DNA from: Gaertneriomyces semiglobifer
Lineage: Eukaryota; Chytridiomycota; Chytridiomycetes; Spizellomycetales; Spizellomycetaceae
Assembly: GCA_025558075.1 (NCBI GenBank)
Contig: JAHLKF010000025.1
Coordinates: forward strand, 240,689-304,688
Length of the DNA stretch: 64,000 nucleotides
Reading direction: 5' to 3'
Positions 33,165 to 64,000 of this stretch are shown here, in pieces. The notes under the pieces are model-generated. The model had not been told where the DNA came from. It saw only the letters and a program-made list of their open reading frames with translations, and did no database searches. A program made the position numbers and the translations under genes. Positions within the stretch are counted from its first letter, which is position 1, and the number at the start of each line of letters is the position of its first letter.

Positions 33165-34450
33165 TCAGCTTGCTTCGTCTTCGGACTCCTCCGCAAAAGC
33201 CGCTCGTTCTGGCGGAAGCTGCTTGACTTCGCCCCGCTGCTCAACAAGCAGACCCAAAAAGATGGGACTCCCATCCGCGTGCTTGAAGCTGAAGGGTCAG
33301 ACGCTTGAATGAGCGACCGGCAGGGTTTTCAACAATCCGGGCTTCCACAGCATGGGTTTGCTGGAGCCCGCTCTCCAGAGTCAAAAAGCACAGCGGTTCC
33401 CCGGATAGCTCCTCGCACCAGAGCACGGCGGTCTTCGACACCGACAGCGAGTACTAGCTCGACGCGCGGTACATTGCCCGTCCGCGATAGTCAAGTTTCC
33501 CGAACCCCAGCACGTCAGCTATGTTGTCTTTCGTCTGCTCGAACAGCAAGTGGAGCTGCGTGCGCCTGCCGTTGAACAATTGTTTGGACGGTAACAAGTT
33601 TCCTGTCGTCAAAGGTCACCTTGTAGCGGTACTTGCCTCGGTCGTTCATCTGCCGTTCCACTTCATTGAGAAGGCTTTCCACGTCGTAGTCCCCGGGCTC
33701 GACTTCGAACGTGACCATCGGGTCGTCGTCTTCGGCAAAGTACATTCTGTTGTTGTTTGGGGTGATGGCGAAGCCGCTGACCGCGACATCCAGGTCAAGC
33801 AGTTCCATGCTGGTGACTCCTTCGAACTCGAAAGGTACCTGATAGTGAGAACTCGTCGGGAATTTGCTTTTGTCCCTGTCCGCTGAGCGGACGATGTGGG
33901 GGACCTTATGATCAGGAACCTTCGTGTCTCGCGGTTTGACTTGCTTCACCGGCTCTGGGTGCGGAGCAACGACGTCAGATATCCTTGTGCACCTGGAGAG
34001 TTTGGCAACCACGGGCCATTCTTCCCGCTCCGCTATGGGCGTTGCCCTGACGTCAGCCGCGACCGACTCTGGTTCCGCTGACCTTTCCTCTCGTTGCCTG
34101 CTTGGAAACGGAACACCGTCCGGACTGACGCCTCGTTTCTTCGGGGTCGCCTCGCACGGCGCCCGCTTCCTCGGGATGCGTTCGCTGACCAACTTCATCA
34201 GTTCGCCTACAGCGTGTTGGTTCAACCTCAAGATCGTCTCCCTCGGGGCTTTCAGATGTGCGTCGTTGATCCTCGGCGCCGCTTCCGCCCAGATATTGCG
34301 CACCGTGTCGGCGGCCAGAGTATTGAAGCGACTGCCGATGTCCACCTTCGACTTCTTGAAAAGGAAGAACACTTCCTCGTAAATGAGGGCGATGTTTTTA
34401 CCAGAGATGAACGCCCGCTGTACGGTCTCCTTGGACGCGCGCACAGACAT
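33165..34450 (-). pseudogene. giant-virus virion structural-like gene, broken
   Basis: The N-terminal half (ATG 34450) has a helical domain (MSVRASKETVQRAF, FFLFKKSKVDIGSRFN), then a Pro/Arg linker. A domain opening RSADRDKSKFPTSSHYQV follows and continues FEGVTSMELLDLDV and FAITPNNNRMYF. This ''RDtskyp... sIELl... NN'' pattern is typical of a structural protein family seen across Nucleocytoviricota. The frame breaks near 33590 (frameshift); the continuing frame holds the expected VLGFGKLDY segment, then meets an in-frame TAG at 33454-33456. It resumes in the same frame and shifts again near 33265 before ending at 33165. So there are two frameshifts and one nonsense codon in the C-terminal half. 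It cannot make a full-length product. The name is by motif resemblance. Confidence 0.6.
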
Positions 34451-34466
34451 TGTTTGCAACCTCTCA

Positions 34467-34622
34467 CTATTTTTTGTTGGCGCGCTTTGCGTTCGTTCGC
34501 TTCCTTTTGGCGGAGCGCCGGCTCTTCTTTGTGGCGGTTTTCCTTTTGCCCTTTCCACCACCAGACAGGCTGTACCTGGGGCTGTACGCGCTCACGGGAG
34601 GGGCGGAGTCGCTTTCGGACAT
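34467..34622 (-). CDS. small basic Ser/Lys/Arg-rich protein
   Basis: 51 residues from ATG 34622 (an in-frame ATG at 34667 would add 15). The second half is almost all Lys, Arg, Thr and Ser (GKRKTATKKSRRSAKRKRT), like DNA-condensing virion proteins. The stop is 17 nt before the start of the structural-like gene on the same strand, a tight viral-style spacing. Also could be a chance frame in GC-rich DNA. Confidence 0.4.
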   Translation of the reverse strand: MSESDSAPPVSAYSPRYSLSGGGKGKRKTATKKSRRSAKRKRTNAKRANKK

Positions 34623-37992: not shown

Positions 37993-38161
37993 CGCCTCAT
38001 TCATCGCCCATTTCGAAAACTTGCACTCAAGCCCCGAATCTTTCCAGTTCTCCGACGGTTCAGGGTGTCCTTTCCTGAACCCAAGATACCCGCTCAGAAG
38101 CACGACGAGCGGCATTTACTGAGACAGACTCCCGTGCCCTTATAGCCCATGGGACCACCGT

Positions 38162-38759
38162 TCAGTCGAGCACGACGATCCAGCGTTCGCCGACGGTCGC
38201 TCGGGCTCTCGTGGCGGTGACCGCGGGGACGCCGCTGGACCTTCGCCGGGACACCTTCCTGCAGGAGAAACCCTCGCACGGAGCGACGGGCTCGGTGCTG
38301 GCGGCGAGATTTTCTTTCATCGCCCGTGGCAATCCTCCCGAGATTGGCCTCGAGGTAGTCGATGATGCCCAGCCCCACCGCCCACTTCAGGAAGGACAAC
38401 TGGCCAAGCGTGGTCTTGTATTTCTCGTTGGGTTTGACGAACCAGTCCGTCTTCTGAGTGTTCTTGGTCTTCCTCGCGAAGGGATCGAACAGTTTCTTGG
38501 AGTAGGTCCGCAATTGCATCTTGTAGCACTTATGGACGTCTATGAGATTGTCGTCGAGCTTGTATTTCACCTCGTTGTACCTGCTGTAGTTCACCACGAA
38601 GTGGTCCAGCAGACGCAGGGATATCTTGCTGGTCCGGTTGATGAAGGGCAGGACCTTGTCCACGTTCTCGGGTTTGCTGTAAAAATCCACCAGAGAGTTG
38701 TGCAGAAGGTTCACGACGACGTCGGACGGTCCTCTTGCTCTGTCTGTTTTTTGTCTCAT
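38162..38759 (-). pseudogene. conserved Nucleocytoviricota-type gene (PBCV-1 A494R-like), frameshifted
   Basis: From ATG 38759 the frame contains VVNLLHNSLVDFYSKPENV, PFINRTSKISLRLLDHFVVNY, YKMQLRTYSKKLFDPFARK and TTLGQLSFLKWAVGLGIIDY, a string I associate with a conserved giant-virus protein of unknown function (A494R of chlorovirus PBCV-1). Near 38330 the frame slips: the annotated frame turns into an Arg-rich tail, while the +1 frame continues with sensible residues to a TGA at 38162-38164 (ending ERWIVVLD). One indel is enough to explain it. Homologues are usually about 200-350 residues, so the relic is nearly full length. Confidence 0.5.
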
Positions 38760-54433: not shown

Positions 54434-55388
54434 GTACTTACGGGTTACGGGGCGACGTCAAATGCAGTACATGCTGCGCTTTGTCATAAAGTTATTGCTC
54501 TCCATTTGCCTGCGCCCCGCGACGACATAATACTACGCTGCTCTACGCAGCGCTGCCTGCTCTAAAACCTACTTGTGCGTCGCCTGGGGAAGGCGAACTC
54601 CCCTCCCAAGAACCGCTGTTCCGTTGGTCCGTTTCGACCTCCTGAAGAGCAGAGCGCTTACGGGGAATGGTGCCGCATGATTGGAATGCGCAGATCGTTG
54701 GCCACATCAAACTGTCGAATTCCCTTTGCAGCCTCTGGGAAAAAGGCTCGTCGACCTTAGAGTACCGTGGAACCGGGCGTTGGACTCAGATGCTGCTGCT
54801 AGCGTCGGCCATGTTGCGGATGCCGCATGCGAAAAGGAGTTGAAATTCCAAATTCTTATGCTTATCATGTTTGGAGGCATTCGCAACCAATCCATGTGAT
54901 GGGCTGGACATTTTGGCCGAAATTTACAATTATCCACCCCAAAACTTTCTATTACGCCAAAAATGAAACTTGACCAAAAAGTAATGTAAACCTTTTTCAG
55001 AAGATACGCTCTGAAAACATGGCCAACATGGCGCATTGATCAACTGGGTTAATCAACTTTTAAAGTTCTCACAATATTACGCCTCCTCAAAACTATCCAT
55101 CATCTCCACGATCCTTCTGACCATGAGAGAAGGGGGTATGATAGTTTGTAACACCTTTTTCGGTATCAATAACGCAAAAGTGGGCGCGGAAGCGGAGTAA
55201 ATTTCAATAGATTTCAATGGATTGCGATATATTTCATATGACACGCCTCTTATTATGAAACAAACGGAAAGAATCGGAAATATATGAAAGATTCGTGAAA
55301 GAAATAAAGTTTGCATTGACGCGGGACCCACGGGGCCGGGAGAAGGTGACACCGAGTGAGCGGGGGTGACTCAGTTGAACACTACATA
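54434..55388. other. intergenic region upstream of tRNA-Asp
   Basis: 955 bp. The left part is GC-rich, the right part from about 54900 is AT-rich. No gene is evident; a minus-strand frame at 55234-55485 is the antisense of the tRNA and its flank. Confidence 0.45.
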
Positions 55389-55460
55389 TCCCAGATCGTA
55401 TAGTGGTTAGTATCTCTTCTTGTCGCGGGGAAGGCCTGGGTTCGATTCCCAGTCTGGGAG
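55389..55460 (+). tRNA. tRNA-Asp (anticodon GTC)
   Basis: 72-nt cloverleaf. Acceptor stem TCCCAGA (55389-55395) pairs perfectly with TCTGGGA (55453-55459), with discriminator G at 55460. The D arm contains TAGTGGTTAGTAT, as in eukaryotic tRNA-Asp. The anticodon stem TCTTC/GGGGA encloses loop TTGTCGC with anticodon GTC. The T arm CTGGG-TTCGATT-CCCAG is perfect. No intron; CCA not encoded, as usual in eukaryotes. A run of T is not obvious just downstream. The stop of the first viral gene lies 24 bp past its 3' end. Confidence 0.93.
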
Positions 55461-55484
55461 CTCCATCTGTTCTTCCATGTGGCA

Positions 55485-56546: not shown

Positions 56547-57074
56547 TTATTGTTGGATGTATCCGACAGGTTGTTCAACACAACAGATATTATGGTGTTT
56601 CAACATGTAAATATTCCCTTGACGATCTTGTGCTTGAATGCGACGCCTATGCGGTTTAATCTTCCAACACATGACTTCCAACGGTTTGGTGGGACAGTCG
56701 TCGTTGGAAATTTTGTCGATTCTTCTAGCAAGTTCGAGTTCATCTGGAAACCCTTCGATGTACAACGGACACAATGGAATATGTTCGTTGATCCATGTGT
56801 ATCGTTTTCCGACCGAGTAGACAGCATGGGCCCAGAAGAGGATACGTCGTCCAATACCGCGATCGAAATAGGTGAACAACTGGAGCTTGGTGATTGCATC
56901 GAGGGTGTGAACAATTCGGACATCGTAGAAGAGTTCGTTGGAGACTCGCCGACCATCTAACGGATGTTTGACAAAATCAATATGTCTTGCTACAAAGCGT
57001 TGAATGTTGTCGTAAGCCGAAACAGTTCGTTTCAACGTGTGGTCTGGTCTGTCTTGGGCTTGTCGTTTGCCCAT
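56547..57074 (-). CDS. uncharacterised viral-type protein, paralogue B
   Basis: 175 residues from ATG 57074 (MGKRQAQDRPDHTLKR). Shares the ARHIDFVKHPLDGRR, TLDAITKLQLFTYFDRGIG and RRILFWAHAVYS core with paralogue A, then has its own middle segment (IPLCPLYIEGFPDELELARR) before the common QGNIYMLKHHNICC end. Start is 54 nt downstream of a TATA box. Its first 43 bp overlap the end of the upstream gene (57032-57868) on the same strand. A second copy of a gene in tandem is typical of viral genome expansion. Confidence 0.62.
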   Translation of the reverse strand: MGKRQAQDRPDHTLKRTVSAYDNIQRFVARHIDFVKHPLDGRRVSNELFYDVRIVHTLDAITKLQLFTYFDRGIGRRILFWAHAVYSVGKRYTWINEHIPLCPLYIEGFPDELELARRIDKISNDDCPTKPLEVMCWKIKPHRRRIQAQDRQGNIYMLKHHNICCVEQPVGYIQQ

Positions 57075-57868
57075 TGTAAGACAGGATTCTGCTCCTTCAT
57101 GTTTGAAAGTAGTTGGGAGAGTTGCTTCCTTTTTATACTTGTACGAGCCCAAGGGATCCGATAGGGTGGTAGGATAGTATGCCGATGAAGTAGCATGAGC
57201 ACAACGTACTGGACCTTGGGAAACCGTTGGCGACCAAGCGATCCTTGTTTTTTGAGGTAATCAAAAGTCCGATGAAGTTGAAAGGCATCTTCCAGAACAA
57301 GTTGCACCTTATGGTACGGAACGTTCCACCGTGGACCACCAAGCCGGGAAATCAGTAGGGGTATAGCGGGATAAAGATGAGGGAGCTTGCGTTGCTTTAG
57401 GTACTTTCGAATAACTTCATAGATATTGCGAGACATCAACAGGGATCCGTGGATGTGTTTCTTTAAGTCACTTTCCAATGTGGGCGGCAGTTTGGTGGTC
57501 GCATGTCCTAGAAGCTGAAAGAAGGTTCTACGTATTCGATAAAGTCGATCATAGTGGTGTGTACGTTGGCGGTTCATTTTCCATTGTTGTTCGTCTTGAT
57601 AATCCATAACCATGGGATGCGCAGTTTCTTCATCTTCAACAACACAGTACCGGTGGTACCCAAAAGGTTCAGGGTCGCACCAAGCAATCTGCGACGACGT
57701 GAATATCGGAAGATGATCGTCGTCTGAGTCATAATACGCCGGCTCAGAGGGTAACAATGGTGGGGAACGTGGCGCAGGATCATTAGGAACGTTGTGGGCC
57801 GAGTTCCATTCATCAGGACTGACCTCGATCCCCAACTCGGCAAGCATGGACAGGTATGTGTTGGACAT
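57032..57868 (-). CDS. uncharacterised protein, possibly VLTF-3-like
   Basis: 278 residues from ATG 57868 (MSNTYLSMLAELGIEV), 53 nt downstream of a TATA box. The first third is acidic and Pro/His-rich. Then comes a helical domain: HHYDRLYRIRRTFFQLLGH, NIYEVIRKYLKQRKLPHLYP, PLLISRLGG, then FPKVQYVVLMLLHRH and RTSIKRKQLSQLLS. The order and spacing (short Lys-Lys-x-x-K helix, a P-x-I-x-x-x-L-x-G turn, then a long R-x-x-F-x-x-x-x-Y-V-L-x-x-L helix) recall poxvirus/giant-virus late transcription factor 3. No zinc ribbon is visible at the start, so this is a tentative structural resemblance. Confidence 0.4.
   Translation of the reverse strand: MSNTYLSMLAELGIEVSPDEWNSAHNVPNDPAPRSPPLLPSEPAYYDSDDDHLPIFTSSQIAWCDPEPFGYHRYCVVEDEETAHPMVMDYQDEQQWKMNRQRTHHYDRLYRIRRTFFQLLGHATTKLPPTLESDLKKHIHGSLLMSRNIYEVIRKYLKQRKLPHLYPAIPLLISRLGGPRWNVPYHKVQLVLEDAFQLHRTFDYLKKQGSLGRQRFPKVQYVVLMLLHRHTILPPYRIPWARTSIKRKQLSQLLSNMKEQNPVLQWANDKPKTDQTTR
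57128..57137 (-). promoter_or_regulatory. TATA box for 56547-57074
   Basis: TATAAAAAGG on the minus strand, 54 nt upstream of the ATG at 57074, inside the coding region of 57032-57868. Confidence 0.5.
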
Positions 57869-57937: not shown

Positions 57938-60900
57938 TCAACCAACTTTAGTTACTATAAACCAGGACATGGTAACATCATCGAGTGCGAACGGTGCAGC
58001 GTCAGGTATATCCGTAGTAATCGTAGTATAAGGGTAAAGCATTCTGAACATAACGGTGTTCTGGTAATTCGTCACCTCCTTTATATGAACACATATATCG
58101 AATATGAGTGACTGGTTAGATCCAGCCGTAGTAGTCGTCACTCCAGATTCTTTGAATGTCAACTGATTGCTTTGACCCAACAACGTCGAAACTAAATAGG
58201 TACCATTATCGGCGCGCACAACATTGTTTGCCTGTAAACGCCACTCGTAGGTAGTGGATTGGTTACGTAGTGGTGATTTCCAAGTAAGGTGTACTTTGAA
58301 AGCGTACACACCCGTTGGTAACGTCACATAACCTAAACGGATGCTTCCCGATGGTGCGGACATATATGTTACTGCAGGTACGAAATCCCCTGTCGGAACA
58401 CCTGATATCGCTTCGAAAGCGAAATACCCCAGTGTTCGGTCCGAAGGAGGTGCCCAAGTGTAGTTGGTAAATCGAAAGACTGCGGAATTCTGAGTCGTAG
58501 CCACAGGGAGAACAGGTTTACCAGTGAGCTCCTCATAGGACAGCGTATTTTTGAAAGCCAAATCGCCCAGTTGTCGGTTTTGAACACGAAACTCGTTGGA
58601 GACGTGAGCCTTCCCACAATGAACAGTATCCACAACATTCAACGATGTATCCAAAGAGATACCGTTTTTCGATATCAAGTCTCCGGTGAACTTGACCATC
58701 TTCAAAATCGCATCGCCATATGTTTGTGCAGCGTTCGTGCGCAAAATAACCAATCTCAAATAGGAACATGGTTGGGCACTGCTCACAGGCACTGTGGAGG
58801 TCTGACTTGGGCTCAGTTGAGCGTCCGCCACAGAGAGTAGAACATTCCAAGTAACACCGTCGATTGATCCGCATAGAGTATAAGCAGCAGGCACTCCGAT
58901 TGTCACCAACGTAAAAGTGAGCTTCTTACATAAGATGGGTTCTGGCAATCGTAGTTGAAACCATTCACCTTTTAGATCTCCTTGGTTACTTGGGGTTGTT
59001 GCATTCAATACATATGCTCCTGTAGCTGCATTGTATGCGGTGGTGACTGTCCTCCACGAAGGTGAACCTCCGTTCCCAGCATATCCAAAACCACCTCCAG
59101 GACCCGTATTTACGTAGAACGAACTACTCGCTGACGCCTCATAAGTACCGTTCCCATAGGGTAAATCAACGAATGTCGAAGTATGGGTGGATTGAAATGT
59201 TGCCGGGGGGAAGACCAAGTCTCGATTGTCCCAGTTGGAAAGTGTTCCCAACGGGAACTTGGCCTGGTTAACCGTGATAGCGCCATTGTTGTCCAAAGTA
59301 GCAAGTGTCGGTTTGTTGATGATATCGTCGCTATTCCAGTCCAGACTCTGTTTAAGTGCCAGGGCACCTATGGGCACACCCTTCACTTTCAGGTTACCCA
59401 ACATGTTCACATCCCCCGTCCCAGGTTCCACGGCAATTCCGCCGCTCACATTGTCGGACTGTAGTAGCAGAGACCCTCCACCGGTATTACGCAACATACA
59501 GGTGTTCGGTCCACCGTTGCCAGTGTATATAGATGAATTGTATTGGAGAAAAGCCCCCTTGGTGGTGTCGTTAGCAAGGCGTACTTGTGTAAAAGCATTC
59601 GCATGCTTGAATCGGTTGGTGCATATCATTTGAACCAATGTGGTATTCACAGCCTTGCTGCCAACGTTCATGGAACCTGTTGTTTCAATGTTGGTGTATT
59701 CCATGTAATGCGTGGTATCGTTGGTTGCAATGGTAACTGGCGATTTCGGAACATAGTATTCAATGTAACCTTGATTCACACCGTTGCTCAACAAAGTCAA
59801 GTGTCCGAGACTTAACCAAGGTGTGTTGGTCACATTGGTGAATGTGTACAGAAGCACTCGTGGTGACGCAACTAATTCGGATCGGGTGTTACCGACGTAT
59901 ACTGAAAGCTCGACCGTGTTGGAGATCGTCTGACGCACGATACGGAAATAGAGATGGCGCGGATCCGTTAGAGTGTGGGTTGCAGAAGCCACTTTTGTCG
60001 GCTCACTGTTAAAACGTGTATATACATCCACCACACGATTGGCCCGGAAGAGGATATTGATTTGCGGTGGTCGGCTCCCAGGTTGGTCGTCAACTTCGTA
60101 CGTATCAAACATACGAATAAGGACACCAAACCATCTGGTGCTTTCACCAACAGCGTTGAGCCGGATACGTCCTTCAACGGTTGCATCGAGATTGTAGTTG
60201 TGAAATACGGCCCCATACATCTGATCGAAATTGTCTGGCGATCCCGCAACAGACAATCGCGCTGCCCATTTTTTCGGTAGCCAATCGTAACGAGCGAACC
60301 GCGGCTTGCCAGCTGCACCATAAAACAATTTCGTGGATACGTATCCGTTGAGAGGATCCAAACATTCCCAATGATACGGGGCAAATGATCTGTACCATTG
60401 TGAAACCGGTATGGGTGCATCTGCGTACGCGCCAACGACACGCTCATACTCTTCTCGGTAGGTCTTCCACTGATGAGGTGAATCCAAAGTGTATAGGAAC
60501 AGATACTTCTCCAAAGTGTCAACGACAGGGTACATTGTACTCAACTGATCGTGGGAACAACAGAGGTGGTCATACGTTGTAGGATCTTGAGCTTGGACAA
60601 GGGTTGGGTTGTTGACCATCCACACAGTGAGATATCCAGCTGCTTTGAACAAGGCCACTTGTTGAAGTTCAAAGTCAGAGAACACCATTCGGTCCGGAGT
60701 CAATCCAATGGTTCGACATTCATTCAGTAAGGCAGTAGGGTCTCCATTTTTGAGTTCCAAGAAAATGATAACCTGAGGATACTTTCTCAAAGCGTCCCAA
60801 GCTTCACGTAGGGTGGGTAAGGGTTGTCCATCAAAGAGATGGGACCATCCAGTTTTGAGGTGCCCCTTTTGGAGTTGTCCAGAAGTATTTCCAGGGTACT

Positions 60901-62971
60901 CGTATTCTTCCATATCATTGTGTGACAGGTACCAGACACCATCCACGGTACGGCAAACATCAAATTCGATGTACTTGAGTCTCCCCCTTTGAATCAGACG
61001 TTCCACATTGGATAATGAATAGATAGGAATCGACAAGGGTCCAAAACGATGGGCAATGACAATGTTACGATCGGACATGTCGAGTTCCACTGTCTTGATT
61101 TGATCATCATCATCATCATCATCTGGGACACCACCATCATCACCACCCTGATCAATGGCTTTTTGAATTTCCTGTTGCAATGTACGATAATTGACCAGTT
61201 CTGTTCCTTCATACGCTGAGCCCGGATCACCCGTAGCATTATGATCGTAGAATGCTCGAGCATTGCTATCCTCGTCTACAATCACTACAAAGGCGTCCGC
61301 GCCGTTAGAACCGCCATAAGCTTTAGCAATGGCTGCGGTCGATAGTCCTAAACACGCTGCCAAAGCACCCATGGTAATGATGGTACCGTTGTTGGCATAC
61401 CAAGAGACAACACTGTTTGCTAAACCTCCCAAAGATCCAGCAACACCTTCCTTGACAAGATCTCCAGCTGCCGAGCTCCCTTGTCCTGGAGCTTTTGTCG
61501 CTAAGCTGATGACACCGTTGCTGATGCTTATTCCAGTTCCACCACTGTAATTTCCAGAGATTTTGCCGGTGTTGTTATCCACACTGATACCTCCACTGCC
61601 ATGATAATTTCCTTTGATGATGTGATGAGAACCATCCTGTGAGGTTACCGTTGTTAGAGTCGCATTGTCCACCAGTTTGGTTAGGTCCACTTTGATCTTC
61701 ACTTCTTCCGTGTCCGGATGAGTGTCAACGTTCAATGTCTGATTGTCAATCAGGTTCTTGACATCCACTTCAATTAAATACAAAGGACGGTTGGATACAT
61801 CCTGGGTTGTTTTGATACGAAGTGTCCTCTTATCAATCAATCCTTCAGTACGAGCCGCTAGACGACCAGCAGCGTCCGGATCGGGATATTCAGCTGGTGG
61901 ACTTAACAACTGCTTCATCATTGTGTTGGTGTCAAATTGAACGCCAAAGCTTGCCAACTTGGCCGGTTTGGTGGTATCATTGTCTGGTTGGGGATCGTAT
62001 GTGTGAAGTGTCCAGTCATGGTTGATGGACATTTGAAACTTAGCTTTGTCATAAGTCAGGGTTTTTCGATCCAGGACATGATGAAAATTGATGCTAAGAC
62101 CGGGCGGTTTCTCGATATTGTTGGCAGGTAATACAACCAGTGTATCGTCGTGGATGACTGTAAGCGCTTTCGGTTGATAGGGCATTCCAGTGTCATCATC
62201 CAATGGAAGCTCTTCGTCGGTGTAGAGATCCTCAGTATCCACAACATTCAGAGGGGGTTTGTAACGAATGTTGAGTTCCTTTTTCTTGAACGTCCCCGCC
62301 TTTCTTGGAGTAGTTGTAATAGATACAGGAGAGTCTTTCCCCGGTCGCATGAATCGCCAGACGTAGAAAACAGGTGCACACACATTGTCAGGGAACTCCA
62401 TCACATTGAGAATGTTGAAACCTCCCGAAGTGATGTATATCGGTGAGTAGACAGCACCTAAACTGATCGGTCCCAAGGGAAGCTCTCCAAAAAAGAATTC
62501 CTTGCTGCATTCGTAACCGTCAGGGTTGTTGGGGTCATCCCTGTCGGAACCGCTTCCAAAAAGAACTTGGCGGGCACCGATATTTTTGATCGTGAGTGTT
62601 CCGTCTTCTTTGACCTTGAAAAAGGTATCATCTGATTTGAGTTGGATCTTAGGATTCCCCGGTGTTTCTATAATGGGGGCGTCAAACGATTTGGTAGTCG
62701 ACAGAGCTCCTTGAGGTGTGACTCGAAACTTCTCACTGTCCAGTTTGAGTGTTACAACGGCATTCTCTTGGTCGATGAGTAAAGGTGGTGCATGGTCAGG
62801 TATAAGGGCGGGGATGTCGGCCTTCACTGCTAACTGATCGTCCTCATTGATTTTCAACGACGTTGGATCCAAACGAAGCGTAATCTTGTTGTTACTATCC
62901 ACAACGAGAGGAACATCGGCACTCACACCGCCTACTCCGCCCGGTCGACGTCCAATAGTGGAGCCACCCAT
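57938..62971 (-). CDS. giant fibre protein with adenovirus-like shaft and glycerophosphodiester phosphodiesterase domain
   Basis: Intact frame of 1,677 residues. After a Gly-rich start, three shaft repeats (residues about 21-130) read PLVVDSNNKITLRLD, PLLIDQENAVVTLKLD and PIIETPGNPKIQLK, the triple beta-spiral pattern of adenovirus fibres. An unrecognised region follows, then Gly/Asn repeats (GNYHGSGGISVDNNTGKI) and a hydrophobic stretch at about 523-550. After an Asp run at about 617-623 comes a GDPD domain (about 630-890): AHRFGP, YIEFDV, LSHND and FLELK give the catalytic His, Glu/Asp, His and Glu. The rest is tail-fibre-like: DGRIRL-type beta sheet, DDIINKPTLA, a discoidin-like segment near 1300-1400 (EWFQLRLPEPI), YEELTGKPVLP, and a beta-rich C-terminal knob. 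Likely binds the host surface and cleaves a glycerophosphodiester or phospholipid there. Confidence 0.75.
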   Translation of the reverse strand: MGGSTIGRRPGGVGGVSADVPLVVDSNNKITLRLDPTSLKINEDDQLAVKADIPALIPDHAPPLLIDQENAVVTLKLDSEKFRVTPQGALSTTKSFDAPIIETPGNPKIQLKSDDTFFKVKEDGTLTIKNIGARQVLFGSGSDRDDPNNPDGYECSKEFFFGELPLGPISLGAVYSPIYITSGGFNILNVMEFPDNVCAPVFYVWRFMRPGKDSPVSITTTPRKAGTFKKKELNIRYKPPLNVVDTEDLYTDEELPLDDDTGMPYQPKALTVIHDDTLVVLPANNIEKPPGLSINFHHVLDRKTLTYDKAKFQMSINHDWTLHTYDPQPDNDTTKPAKLASFGVQFDTNTMMKQLLSPPAEYPDPDAAGRLAARTEGLIDKRTLRIKTTQDVSNRPLYLIEVDVKNLIDNQTLNVDTHPDTEEVKIKVDLTKLVDNATLTTVTSQDGSHHIIKGNYHGSGGISVDNNTGKISGNYSGGTGISISNGVISLATKAPGQGSSAAGDLVKEGVAGSLGGLANSVVSWYANNGTIITMGALAACLGLSTAAIAKAYGGSNGADAFVVIVDEDSNARAFYDHNATGDPGSAYEGTELVNYRTLQQEIQKAIDQGGDDGGVPDDDDDDDQIKTVELDMSDRNIVIAHRFGPLSIPIYSLSNVERLIQRGRLKYIEFDVCRTVDGVWYLSHNDMEEYEYPGNTSGQLQKGHLKTGWSHLFDGQPLPTLREAWDALRKYPQVIIFLELKNGDPTALLNECRTIGLTPDRMVFSDFELQQVALFKAAGYLTVWMVNNPTLVQAQDPTTYDHLCCSHDQLSTMYPVVDTLEKYLFLYTLDSPHQWKTYREEYERVVGAYADAPIPVSQWYRSFAPYHWECLDPLNGYVSTKLFYGAAGKPRFARYDWLPKKWAARLSVAGSPDNFDQMYGAVFHNYNLDATVEGRIRLNAVGESTRWFGVLIRMFDTYEVDDQPGSRPPQINILFRANRVVDVYTRFNSEPTKVASATHTLTDPRHLYFRIVRQTISNTVELSVYVGNTRSELVASPRVLLYTFTNVTNTPWLSLGHLTLLSNGVNQGYIEYYVPKSPVTIATNDTTHYMEYTNIETTGSMNVGSKAVNTTLVQMICTNRFKHANAFTQVRLANDTTKGAFLQYNSSIYTGNGGPNTCMLRNTGGGSLLLQSDNVSGGIAVEPGTGDVNMLGNLKVKGVPIGALALKQSLDWNSDDIINKPTLATLDNNGAITVNQAKFPLGTLSNWDNRDLVFPPATFQSTHTSTFVDLPYGNGTYEASASSSFYVNTGPGGGFGYAGNGGSPSWRTVTTAYNAATGAYVLNATTPSNQGDLKGEWFQLRLPEPILCKKLTFTLVTIGVPAAYTLCGSIDGVTWNVLLSVADAQLSPSQTSTVPVSSAQPCSYLRLVILRTNAAQTYGDAILKMVKFTGDLISKNGISLDTSLNVVDTVHCGKAHVSNEFRVQNRQLGDLAFKNTLSYEELTGKPVLPVATTQNSAVFRFTNYTWAPPSDRTLGYFAFEAISGVPTGDFVPAVTYMSAPSGSIRLGYVTLPTGVYAFKVHLTWKSPLRNQSTTYEWRLQANNVVRADNGTYLVSTLLGQSNQLTFKESGVTTTTAGSNQSLIFDICVHIKEVTNYQNTVMFRMLYPYTTITTDIPDAAPFALDDVTMSWFIVTKVG
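61103..61123. repeat. ATC trinucleotide run
   Basis: Seven ATC units on the plus strand, encoding a poly-Asp linker just before the GDPD domain of the fibre protein. Confidence 0.85.
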
Positions 62972-63054
62972 TGTTGGTTGGTTACGTATACTGTCGGTTG
63001 CATACTATCTAGCTGATCTTTTTGTGTGCATCTCATCATATTGGGGCGAACAAA
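62972..63054. promoter_or_regulatory. divergent promoter between fibre and truncated gene
   Basis: 83 bp between the ATGs at 62971 (-) and 63055 (+). TAGATAGTATGC and GTATACGTAACC occur, but there is no TATA box like those of the other element genes, suggesting a different expression class. Confidence 0.35.
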
Positions 63055-64000
63055 ATGAACGCCGACCCACGTTCGCAGATCCTCTTGAACCAATTGGGAG
63101 ACGTCCCAACGATTCCTCAACGCAAGCTGGCTGTCTTTGTGGCGCCATTAGAGAAACTCAAGTTCAAAAAACGACGAGGGCGTGGGGGTACCAGCTACAA
63201 CAACCCAAATAACCTCGTCAAGGAACACGTGAAGAAAGACCTCCCCGACAAAAAGGAGGAAGAGGAAGAGGATGATGAACCAAAAGTACAAGTTGATCCA
63301 AAACAAAAGGTAACGAATTGGTTAGACAAACTAAAACAGGACACGCTGCTGCCGCCGACACCTTCTCTACCGAAAAGACGCACGACAGTACCCAACAAGG
63401 AAAAACATGGTGTTCCATCAGTGGACGAGAAGGAGGCACAAGAAGAACGGAAGCGCTTGATCGCCCATCATGGCGGGCCGGTAGCATATATGAACAAAGT
63501 TCAATCAGGAAAGATCAACGTCCACACACTTGTACCTGAAGGCGACATAGCACGACCTATGGTCGTGGACTCGAGTCCAACAAATGAACCAGCCAAACAG
63601 AAAAGAGGGGGCAAGGCTGCAAAGAAACAAAGTCACAGCAAACCAGAACCCATGGAAGTGGATAAGAAATCGAAAACCCAGAAGAAACAGAGTGTGACGA
63701 AACCAGAACCCATGGAAGTAGATACAACATCAAAAGCCCATAAGAAACCAGAACCTGTAAAGGATCAGGTCAAAGCAAAGAAAAGTGTTTATGAGGAGGG
63801 AAAGGAGCTACAACAGCAACCACCGTCCTCTCTGATAACAAAAAAGACACCGGAAAATAAACGCCATACGAAAGAAGCGATCACGGACGTTATACGTACA
63901 AAGGTCATATCGAAGGGGAATGCCGGTGGAACTACATTAGGCAAACACACCAGTAGTGATATGTATGAACTCCACAACATTTTCGGGGGCAAAGTGGACT
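63055..64000 (+). CDS. lysine-rich protein, truncated by window end
   Basis: Open frame from ATG 63055 (MNADPRSQILLNQLGDVP) with no stop in the remaining 946 bp. A short folded-looking start (QRKLAVFVAPLEKLKF) leads to a basic, RG-containing patch (KKRRGRGGTSYNNP). Then follows a long Lys/Glu-rich, probably disordered stretch with two KPEPMEVD repeats (around 63645-63720) and a short ordered segment (EAQEERKRLIAHHGGPVAYM). Such an N-terminal extension could precede an enzyme or virion protein. Nothing visible identifies it. Confidence 0.55.
   Translation, partial: MNADPRSQILLNQLGDVPTIPQRKLAVFVAPLEKLKFKKRRGRGGTSYNNPNNLVKEHVKKDLPDKKEEEEEDDEPKVQVDPKQKVTNWLDKLKQDTLLPPTPSLPKRRTTVPNKEKHGVPSVDEKEAQEERKRLIAHHGGPVAYMNKVQSGKINVHTLVPEGDIARPMVVDSSPTNEPAKQKRGGKAAKKQSHSKPEPMEVDKKSKTQKKQSVTKPEPMEVDTTSKAHKKPEPVKDQVKAKKSVYEEGKELQQQPPSSLITKKTPENKRHTKEAITDVIRTKVISKGNAGGTTLGKHTSSDMYELHNIFGGKVD

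What the first reader, a model, noticed from the sequence alone, without database searches (positions are those of the whole stretch)
57938..62971. Viral-type fibre that carries its own phosphodiesterase
One intact 1,677-residue frame combines adenovirus-like shaft repeats, a GDPD domain with its His, Glu-x-Asp, His and Glu catalytic positions all present, and phage-like tail-fibre segments (DDIINKPTLA, YEELTGKPVLP). Fibres with lipid- or glycerol-phosphate-cleaving activity are known as ideas in phage (cell-wall enzymes), but I know of no described eukaryotic virus fibre with a GDPD domain. It could let a virus strip a host-surface lipid or glycerophosphate polymer at entry or exit. Function is inference; the motifs are seen.
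Basis: partly seen in the sequence, partly recalled or inferred. Interest (0 to 1): 0.9.

Follow-up and report, generated by a model that had tools for sequence, protein, structure and literature searches.

The report
Fungal-virus fibre with built-in phosphodiesterase
An integrated virus-like element in a chytrid fungus encodes a long attachment fibre with an enzyme-like module of a kind that cuts glycerol-phosphate bonds built into it, an arrangement resembling some bacterial-virus spikes.

Summary
One intact 1,677-residue frame lies at 57938-62971 (-), in a repeated polinton-type element of the chytrid Gaertneriomyces semiglobifer, not in an animal virus. Residues 1-140, scanned alone, match the avian-adenovirus fibre family over its cut-off (a cadherin family also passes there, so this part is suggestive). 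Residues ~632-863 are a divergent GDPD: bacterial GDPDs align over the first half with His641, Glu669, Asp671, His684 and Glu739 in register, and an AlphaFold2 model gives a TIM barrel whose best structural matches are mostly GDPDs plus two phage spike/tail domains. Pfam's GDPD model does not report it. The five residues are kept in the 7 genomic copies that cover them and in a relative's protein; dN/dS there is about 0.08 between the window copy and copies C7, C38 and C5. The tip (1226-1677) is exchanged: four copies carry another, shorter end, and a distinct virus family in the same genome shares the long one. Modular polinton-like-virus fibres are published, one kind with a phospholipase; I found no published GDPD-bearing fibre of a eukaryotic virus. 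Catalysis, trimerisation and a role at entry are inferred; the capsid genes were not confirmed.

The parts
57938..62971 (-). intact 1,677-aa modular fibre ORF
   Evidence: copies
62552..62971 (-). residues 1-140: adenovirus-fibre-like tail/shaft (PF06536 over cut-off on this segment, residues 16-50)
60383..61078 (-). residues 632-863: GDPD TIM-barrel module
61049..61051 (-). His641 codon (end of strand 1)
60959..60967 (-). Glu669-x-Asp671 codons (strand 2)
60920..60922 (-). His684 codon (after strand 2)
60755..60757 (-). Glu739 codon (third barrel strand)
59297..60382 (-). residues 864-1225: uncharacterised stretch ending in phage-tail-like segment
57941..59296 (-). residues 1226-1677: exchangeable tip with a discoidin (F5/8C)-like part; replaced by a shorter end in 4 copies
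57032..57868 (-). neighbouring VLTF3-like gene (PF04947 E 1e-3, below cut-off)
63022..63999 (+). neighbouring Lys-rich, repeat-containing ORF, runs off the contig end
55485..55991 (-). RING-like ORF of the element (matches below cut-off)
55125..55185 (.). conserved terminus of the element

Best explanation
This is the fibre of an endogenous polinton-type virus of Gaertneriomyces. The N-terminal adenovirus-fibre-like segment anchors a trimeric shaft on the capsid (inferred). An exchangeable C-terminal tip with a discoidin-like part binds a glycan or protein on the chytrid surface (exchange shown, binding inferred). A GDPD TIM barrel set in the middle behind an Asp/Gly-rich linker (linker, predicted barrel and selection shown) hydrolyses a glycerophosphodiester or related phosphodiester at the host surface, such as a lysophospholipid, a GPI-type anchor or a phosphoglycan, during attachment or release (inferred). 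It works like the GDPD modules on phage tails, with a membrane or fungal surface in place of a bacterial wall polymer.
Against: HRG reads HRF and PEN reads PIY, and PF03009 misses it. Sequence detection covers only the first half of the barrel. The AF2 alignment held eight database GDPDs beside four fibre rows, so the model is not independent of them; residues 620-623, 647-650, 686-710 and 853-900 are below pLDDT 50. A cadherin family passes its cut-off in the same scan as PF06536. Neither the MCP-like nor the penton-like neighbour was confirmed. The annotators' model of the C5 copy (P0004) skips the H641 region, though the DNA encodes it. No particle, trimer or activity is shown.
Confidence: 0.6

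Rival explanations
1. The GDPD barrel is kept as a binding or spacer domain that recognises a phosphate-containing ligand but no longer cuts it.
For: Glycine of HRG and the PEN motif are lost; Pfam's model misses it; the tip is related to proteins with a discoidin binding domain.
Against: All five catalytic positions are kept in 7 of 7 covering copies and in P0002, and sit at the expected barrel strands; a mere binder need not keep the metal ligands (inference).
Confidence: 0.22
2. The enzyme acts mainly at exit or after uptake, as a receptor-destroying or endosome-weakening activity, and not at first attachment.
For: PMC12220804 suggests cell entry or endosomal escape for combined discoidin and patatin domains.
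Against: Nothing here separates the steps; no expression or particle data.
Confidence: 0.2
3. It is a surface or adhesin protein of a transposon or of the host, not part of a virion.
For: MCP-like and penton-like genes are unconfirmed; only the window copy is open over the full length, the others being interrupted or partial, some at contig ends.
Against: Adenovirus-fibre-like N-terminus; VLTF3-like gene beside it and A32 ATPase and PolB further along the element in C38; purifying selection in a dispersed element.
Confidence: 0.1

Closest known systems
Modular fibres of polinton-like viruses (PMC12220804, section 13 part 1 of 2 read)
   Same: Large modular proteins with PF06536 avian-adenovirus fibre domain, phage tail repeats and discoidin; in one kind discoidin fused to a patatin-like phospholipase.
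   Different: No GDPD is named in that part, and the paper is not among the two that hold both 'polinton' and 'phosphodiesterase'; its supplements were not seen. Hosts there are algae and other protists; here no Peptidase_S74 was reported in the Pfam scans.
Phage spike domains: phi812 central spike 9eul and phage K gp155 C-terminal domain 9f5m (titles only)
   Different: Bacterial viruses; 12-13% identity; the titles do not say GDPD, and action on wall polymers is recalled, not read.
Phage baseplate/tail GDPDs: enterococcal survey PMC10194240 (passages read); Ld17 baseplate enzyme (seen only in its reference list)
   Same: GDPD domain in phage tail modules, in one kind fused to a baseplate protein; the same five residues are named.
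   Different: Proposed to act on bacterial teichoic acids; different structural partner.
Chytrid polinton-like virus group of Spizellomyces punctatus (PMC7805220, passages read)
   Same: Polinton-like element in another chytrid; 52% of the group carry a chitinase, another surface-degrading enzyme.
   Different: 'fiber' and 'fibre' are not in that paper's main text; chitinase is not reported as a fibre domain in the passages read.

Membership tests
GDPD superfamily | Two catalytic His and three acidic metal ligands (HR, ExD, H, E) | tested here: met
GDPD superfamily | (beta/alpha)8 barrel with those residues at the first strands | tested here: met
   AF2 model; 8 of the 12 alignment rows were database GDPDs
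GDPD superfamily | Canonical HRG and PEN motifs (not part of the catalytic set) | tested here: not met
   HRF and PIY; PF03009 not reported. Hence described as a divergent, GDPD-like member of the fold and not filed as a canonical PF03009 enzyme
GDPD superfamily | Metal-dependent phosphodiesterase activity | not testable with these tools
   needs protein
Adenovirus-type fibre | Fibre N-terminal/shaft sequence family | tested here: inconclusive
   PF06536 26.7 bits, cut-off 22.7, on residues 1-140; under cut-off on the full protein, in P0001, P0003, P0004, and not reported at E<=1 for P0002; a cadherin family passes in the same scan; 0 PDB hits for this segment
Adenovirus-type fibre | Triple beta-spiral trimer on a penton | not testable with these tools
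   no trimer prediction available
Polinton / polinton-like virus | Packaging ATPase of the A32 kind | tested here: met
   PF04665 E 5.9e-9 in the C38 copy, in a stretch shared with C7
Polinton / polinton-like virus | B-family viral DNA polymerase | tested here: met
   PF03175 E 1.2e-7 on one piece of a broken frame in C38; it lies beyond the end of the C7 contig, so its place in this element rests on C38 alone
Polinton / polinton-like virus | Double-jelly-roll MCP and jelly-roll penton | tested here: inconclusive
   MCP-like model pLDDT 37; no capsid match in PDB by sequence; penton-like ORF PF19254 E 1e-4, below cut-off
Polinton / polinton-like virus | Terminal inverted repeats and integrase | tested here: inconclusive
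   one conserved terminus seen; other end and an integrase of this family not reached

The most novel reading that the evidence does not exclude
First attachment fibre of a eukaryotic DNA virus that is itself an active glycerophosphodiesterase: it trims a phospholipid, GPI anchor or phosphoglycan on zoospores at entry, with the enzyme module constant while the receptor-binding tip is traded between virus families, a logic convergent with phage spikes.
Probability: 0.4. Interest if true: 0.78.

Novelty: new variant of a known kind. Interest (0 to 1): 0.64.

Why it matters
Little is known of how DNA viruses enter fungi (recalled). A conserved, selection-maintained enzyme module on a fibre, with a swappable tip, gives a concrete, testable entry mechanism for chytrid viruses and a eukaryotic counterpart to phage tail enzymes.

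Tried and rejected
Rejected: animal virus or adenovirus. The hit proteins named Gaertneriomyces semiglobifer lie on contigs of 164520, 924567, 1210509, 69588 and 52748 bases, the lengths of C32, C7, C5, C45 and C49 of this assembly. Rejected: a GDPD in the other fibre family; phmmer of the GDPD against ten element and window proteins found only its own fibre. Capture from the host's own GDPDs: PF03009 in the own genome was found at two places only, C7:733k and C15:429k; I built no tree, so origin is open. Led nowhere: viral-contig scans with VLTF3-like, MCP-like, GDPD, penton-like and tip queries, 0 relatives in 5 scans, which reach close relatives only; protein search with the excised GDPD, 0 hits; the profile search listed 120 of 162 proteins, those named being lactobacilli and kin because of one seed, so it says nothing on the nearest relative; MCP-like model too poor to use; PDB search with residues 1-140, 0 hits at E<=10; no Foldseek search of BFVD was obtained.

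Literature: searches. The statement that no GDPD-bearing fibre of a eukaryotic virus was found rests on these, on the passages or sections opened and; subscription papers and supplements are not covered.

Full report
WHERE IT IS. The window is 240689-304688 of contig C25 of a 20.86-Mb, 66-contig assembly. The closest database protein, P0001 (97% identity), is named Gaertneriomyces semiglobifer, and hit proteins of that name sit on contigs whose lengths equal C32, C7, C5, C45 and C49 of this assembly. So the host is that chytrid fungus. A protein of Gaertneriomyces sp. JEL0708 is 81% identical (P0002); its gene model runs on into the VLTF3-like neighbour.

THE ELEMENT. DNA comparison with fetched stretches of C7, C28, C38, C32, C5 and C63 breaks at window 55120-55125 in each. 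There a conserved terminus begins; one search printed nine such ends (window, C7, C28, C38, C5, C32, C1 and two on C63) with seven distinct flanks, C38 sharing one with C63 and C1 one with the inverted C63 end. C1 and C7 also share about 3 kb further out at 86%. From the terminus the order is RING-like ORF, two small ORFs, VLTF3-like gene, fibre, and a Lys-rich ORF on the other strand cut by the contig end. On C7 and C38 this continues (and on C1, where the fibre is absent, resumes) with an MCP-like ORF, often interrupted, a penton-like ORF (PF19254 E 1e-4, below cut-off), an HNH-like ORF (below cut-off) and, on C38, an A32-type ATPase (PF04665 E 5.9e-9, over cut-off; its stretch is shared with C7) and pieces of a B-family DNA polymerase (PF03175 E 1.2e-7, over cut-off; seen on C38 only). 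This is the layout of a polinton or polinton-like virus. The capsid assignments rest on position only: the MCP-like model is poor (pLDDT 37) and neither protein matches a solved capsid protein by sequence.

THE FIBRE. The frame is intact for 1,677 residues. The own-genome search lists 34 matching stretches, a lower bound; those at 70% identity or more lie on ten contigs (C25, C32, C28, C7, C58, C38, C63, C5, C45, C49). Only C25 is open over the whole length; the others are in pieces or partial, some at contig ends, and C49 and one of two C45 places match only the tip. Modules: (a) residues 1-140, PF06536 avian adenovirus fibre, 26.7 bits against a cut-off of 22.7 when the segment is scanned alone, under the cut-off on the whole protein; PF08758 Cadherin_pro also passes in that scan; the second fibre family has a weak PF00608 adenovirus-shaft hit, E 0.0016, below cut-off. 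(b) residues 141-620, no family over cut-off. (c) an Asp/Gly-rich linker and the GDPD, about 632-863. (d) residues to 1225, no family. (e) the tip 1226-1677; F5/8C discoidin is seen below cut-off in P0002 and P0005 and above it in P0006, which shares this segment, but is not reported in the window's own copy; phrog_16348, function unknown, E 3.4e-6, covers 1305-1431.

SELECTION. Nei-Gojobori counts on codons in register, gaps and stop codons dropped, region 625-890: C25 against C7, 266 codons, 79 synonymous and 32 non-synonymous differences, dS 0.69, dN/dS 0.077; C38 0.078, C5 0.083 (C7, C38 and C5 are close relatives here, so these are not independent); C63 0.126; C45 0.126 (195 codons). For C25 against C7 other regions give 0.119 (141-620) and 0.22 (891-1226); the shaft has too few changes. 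The GDPD is not the lowest region everywhere: the shaft is lower in C25-C5, C25-C28 and C5-C63, and the tip in C25-C28. The five residues are kept in 7 of 7 copies covering them (C45 covers only E739; C58 none). Synonymous divergence jumps along the gene, a sign of recombination between copies.

TIP EXCHANGE. In C7, C38, C5 and C63 homology stops at residue 1226 and a different end of about 180 residues follows (interrupted in C38). Conversely, the fibre of a second, distinct virus family nested in C38 shares the long tip (29% identity, E 9e-29) but not the GDPD (the MCP-like proteins of the two families do not match at E<=1, the ATPases at E 0.001), and P0006 and P0007 on C49 and C45, otherwise different fibres, share part of it at 65-68%. 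So the enzyme was seen only in this family while tips are shared across families, as expected of receptor-binding parts.

MECHANISM. Shown: intact frame, GDPD barrel (predicted) with its residues, selection, modular exchange, viral-type gene neighbourhood. Inferred: trimer on a capsid, surface binding by the tip, hydrolysis of a surface glycerophosphodiester, and the infection step. Chytrids spread by wall-less zoospores (recalled), which would expose membrane lipids and anchors to such an enzyme.

WHAT IS KNOWN. PMC12220804 (section 13, part 1 of 2 read) describes modular polinton-like-virus fibres with PF06536, phage tail repeats and discoidin, in one kind fused to a patatin-like phospholipase. 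PMC7805220 (passages) reports a polinton-like virus group with an integrated member in a chytrid and with chitinase. PMC10194240 (passages) reports GDPD domains in phage tail modules. PMC10120064 (passages) left fungi out of its genome survey. PMC12584671 (passages) names a GDPD orthogroup in Micromonas viruses, not as a fibre. PMC12721341 (passages) has no 'fiber' or 'fibre'. I therefore file this as a new variant of a known kind.

Noticed in passing
L016, L018, L019 (contig C38:20001-60000): A second, distinct polinton-like virus family interrupts the C38 copy: long fibre with F5/8C domain, capsid-like ORF, ATPase-like ORF, helicase-like ORF, rve integrase with chromodomain (F5/8C, rve and Chromo over cut-off; the rest by look).
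   Followed up: partly
window 33515-34561 and 38094-38759 (-): ORFs matching PF19254 (E 1e-9) and PF23827/DUF7197 (E 5e-28), both over cut-off, near a GC-richer stretch; the first has one match in the genome. Possibly another viral remnant.
   Followed up: partly
fibre gene 57938-62971, copies compared: Synonymous divergence between copies jumps several-fold along the gene, pointing to recombination among endogenous copies.
   Followed up: partly
window 55389-55461 (+): A predicted tRNA-Asp lies just inside the element terminus, in a stretch that does not align in the C28, C38 and C5 copies.
   Followed up: no
L031 (contig C1:719000-728000): A copy in which the RING-side end runs directly into the MCP-like gene, the fibre and VLTF3-like genes being absent.
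   Followed up: no
fibre residues about 529-554: A hydrophobic, Ala/Gly-rich segment ahead of the GDPD; its role in a fibre is unexplained.
   Followed up: no
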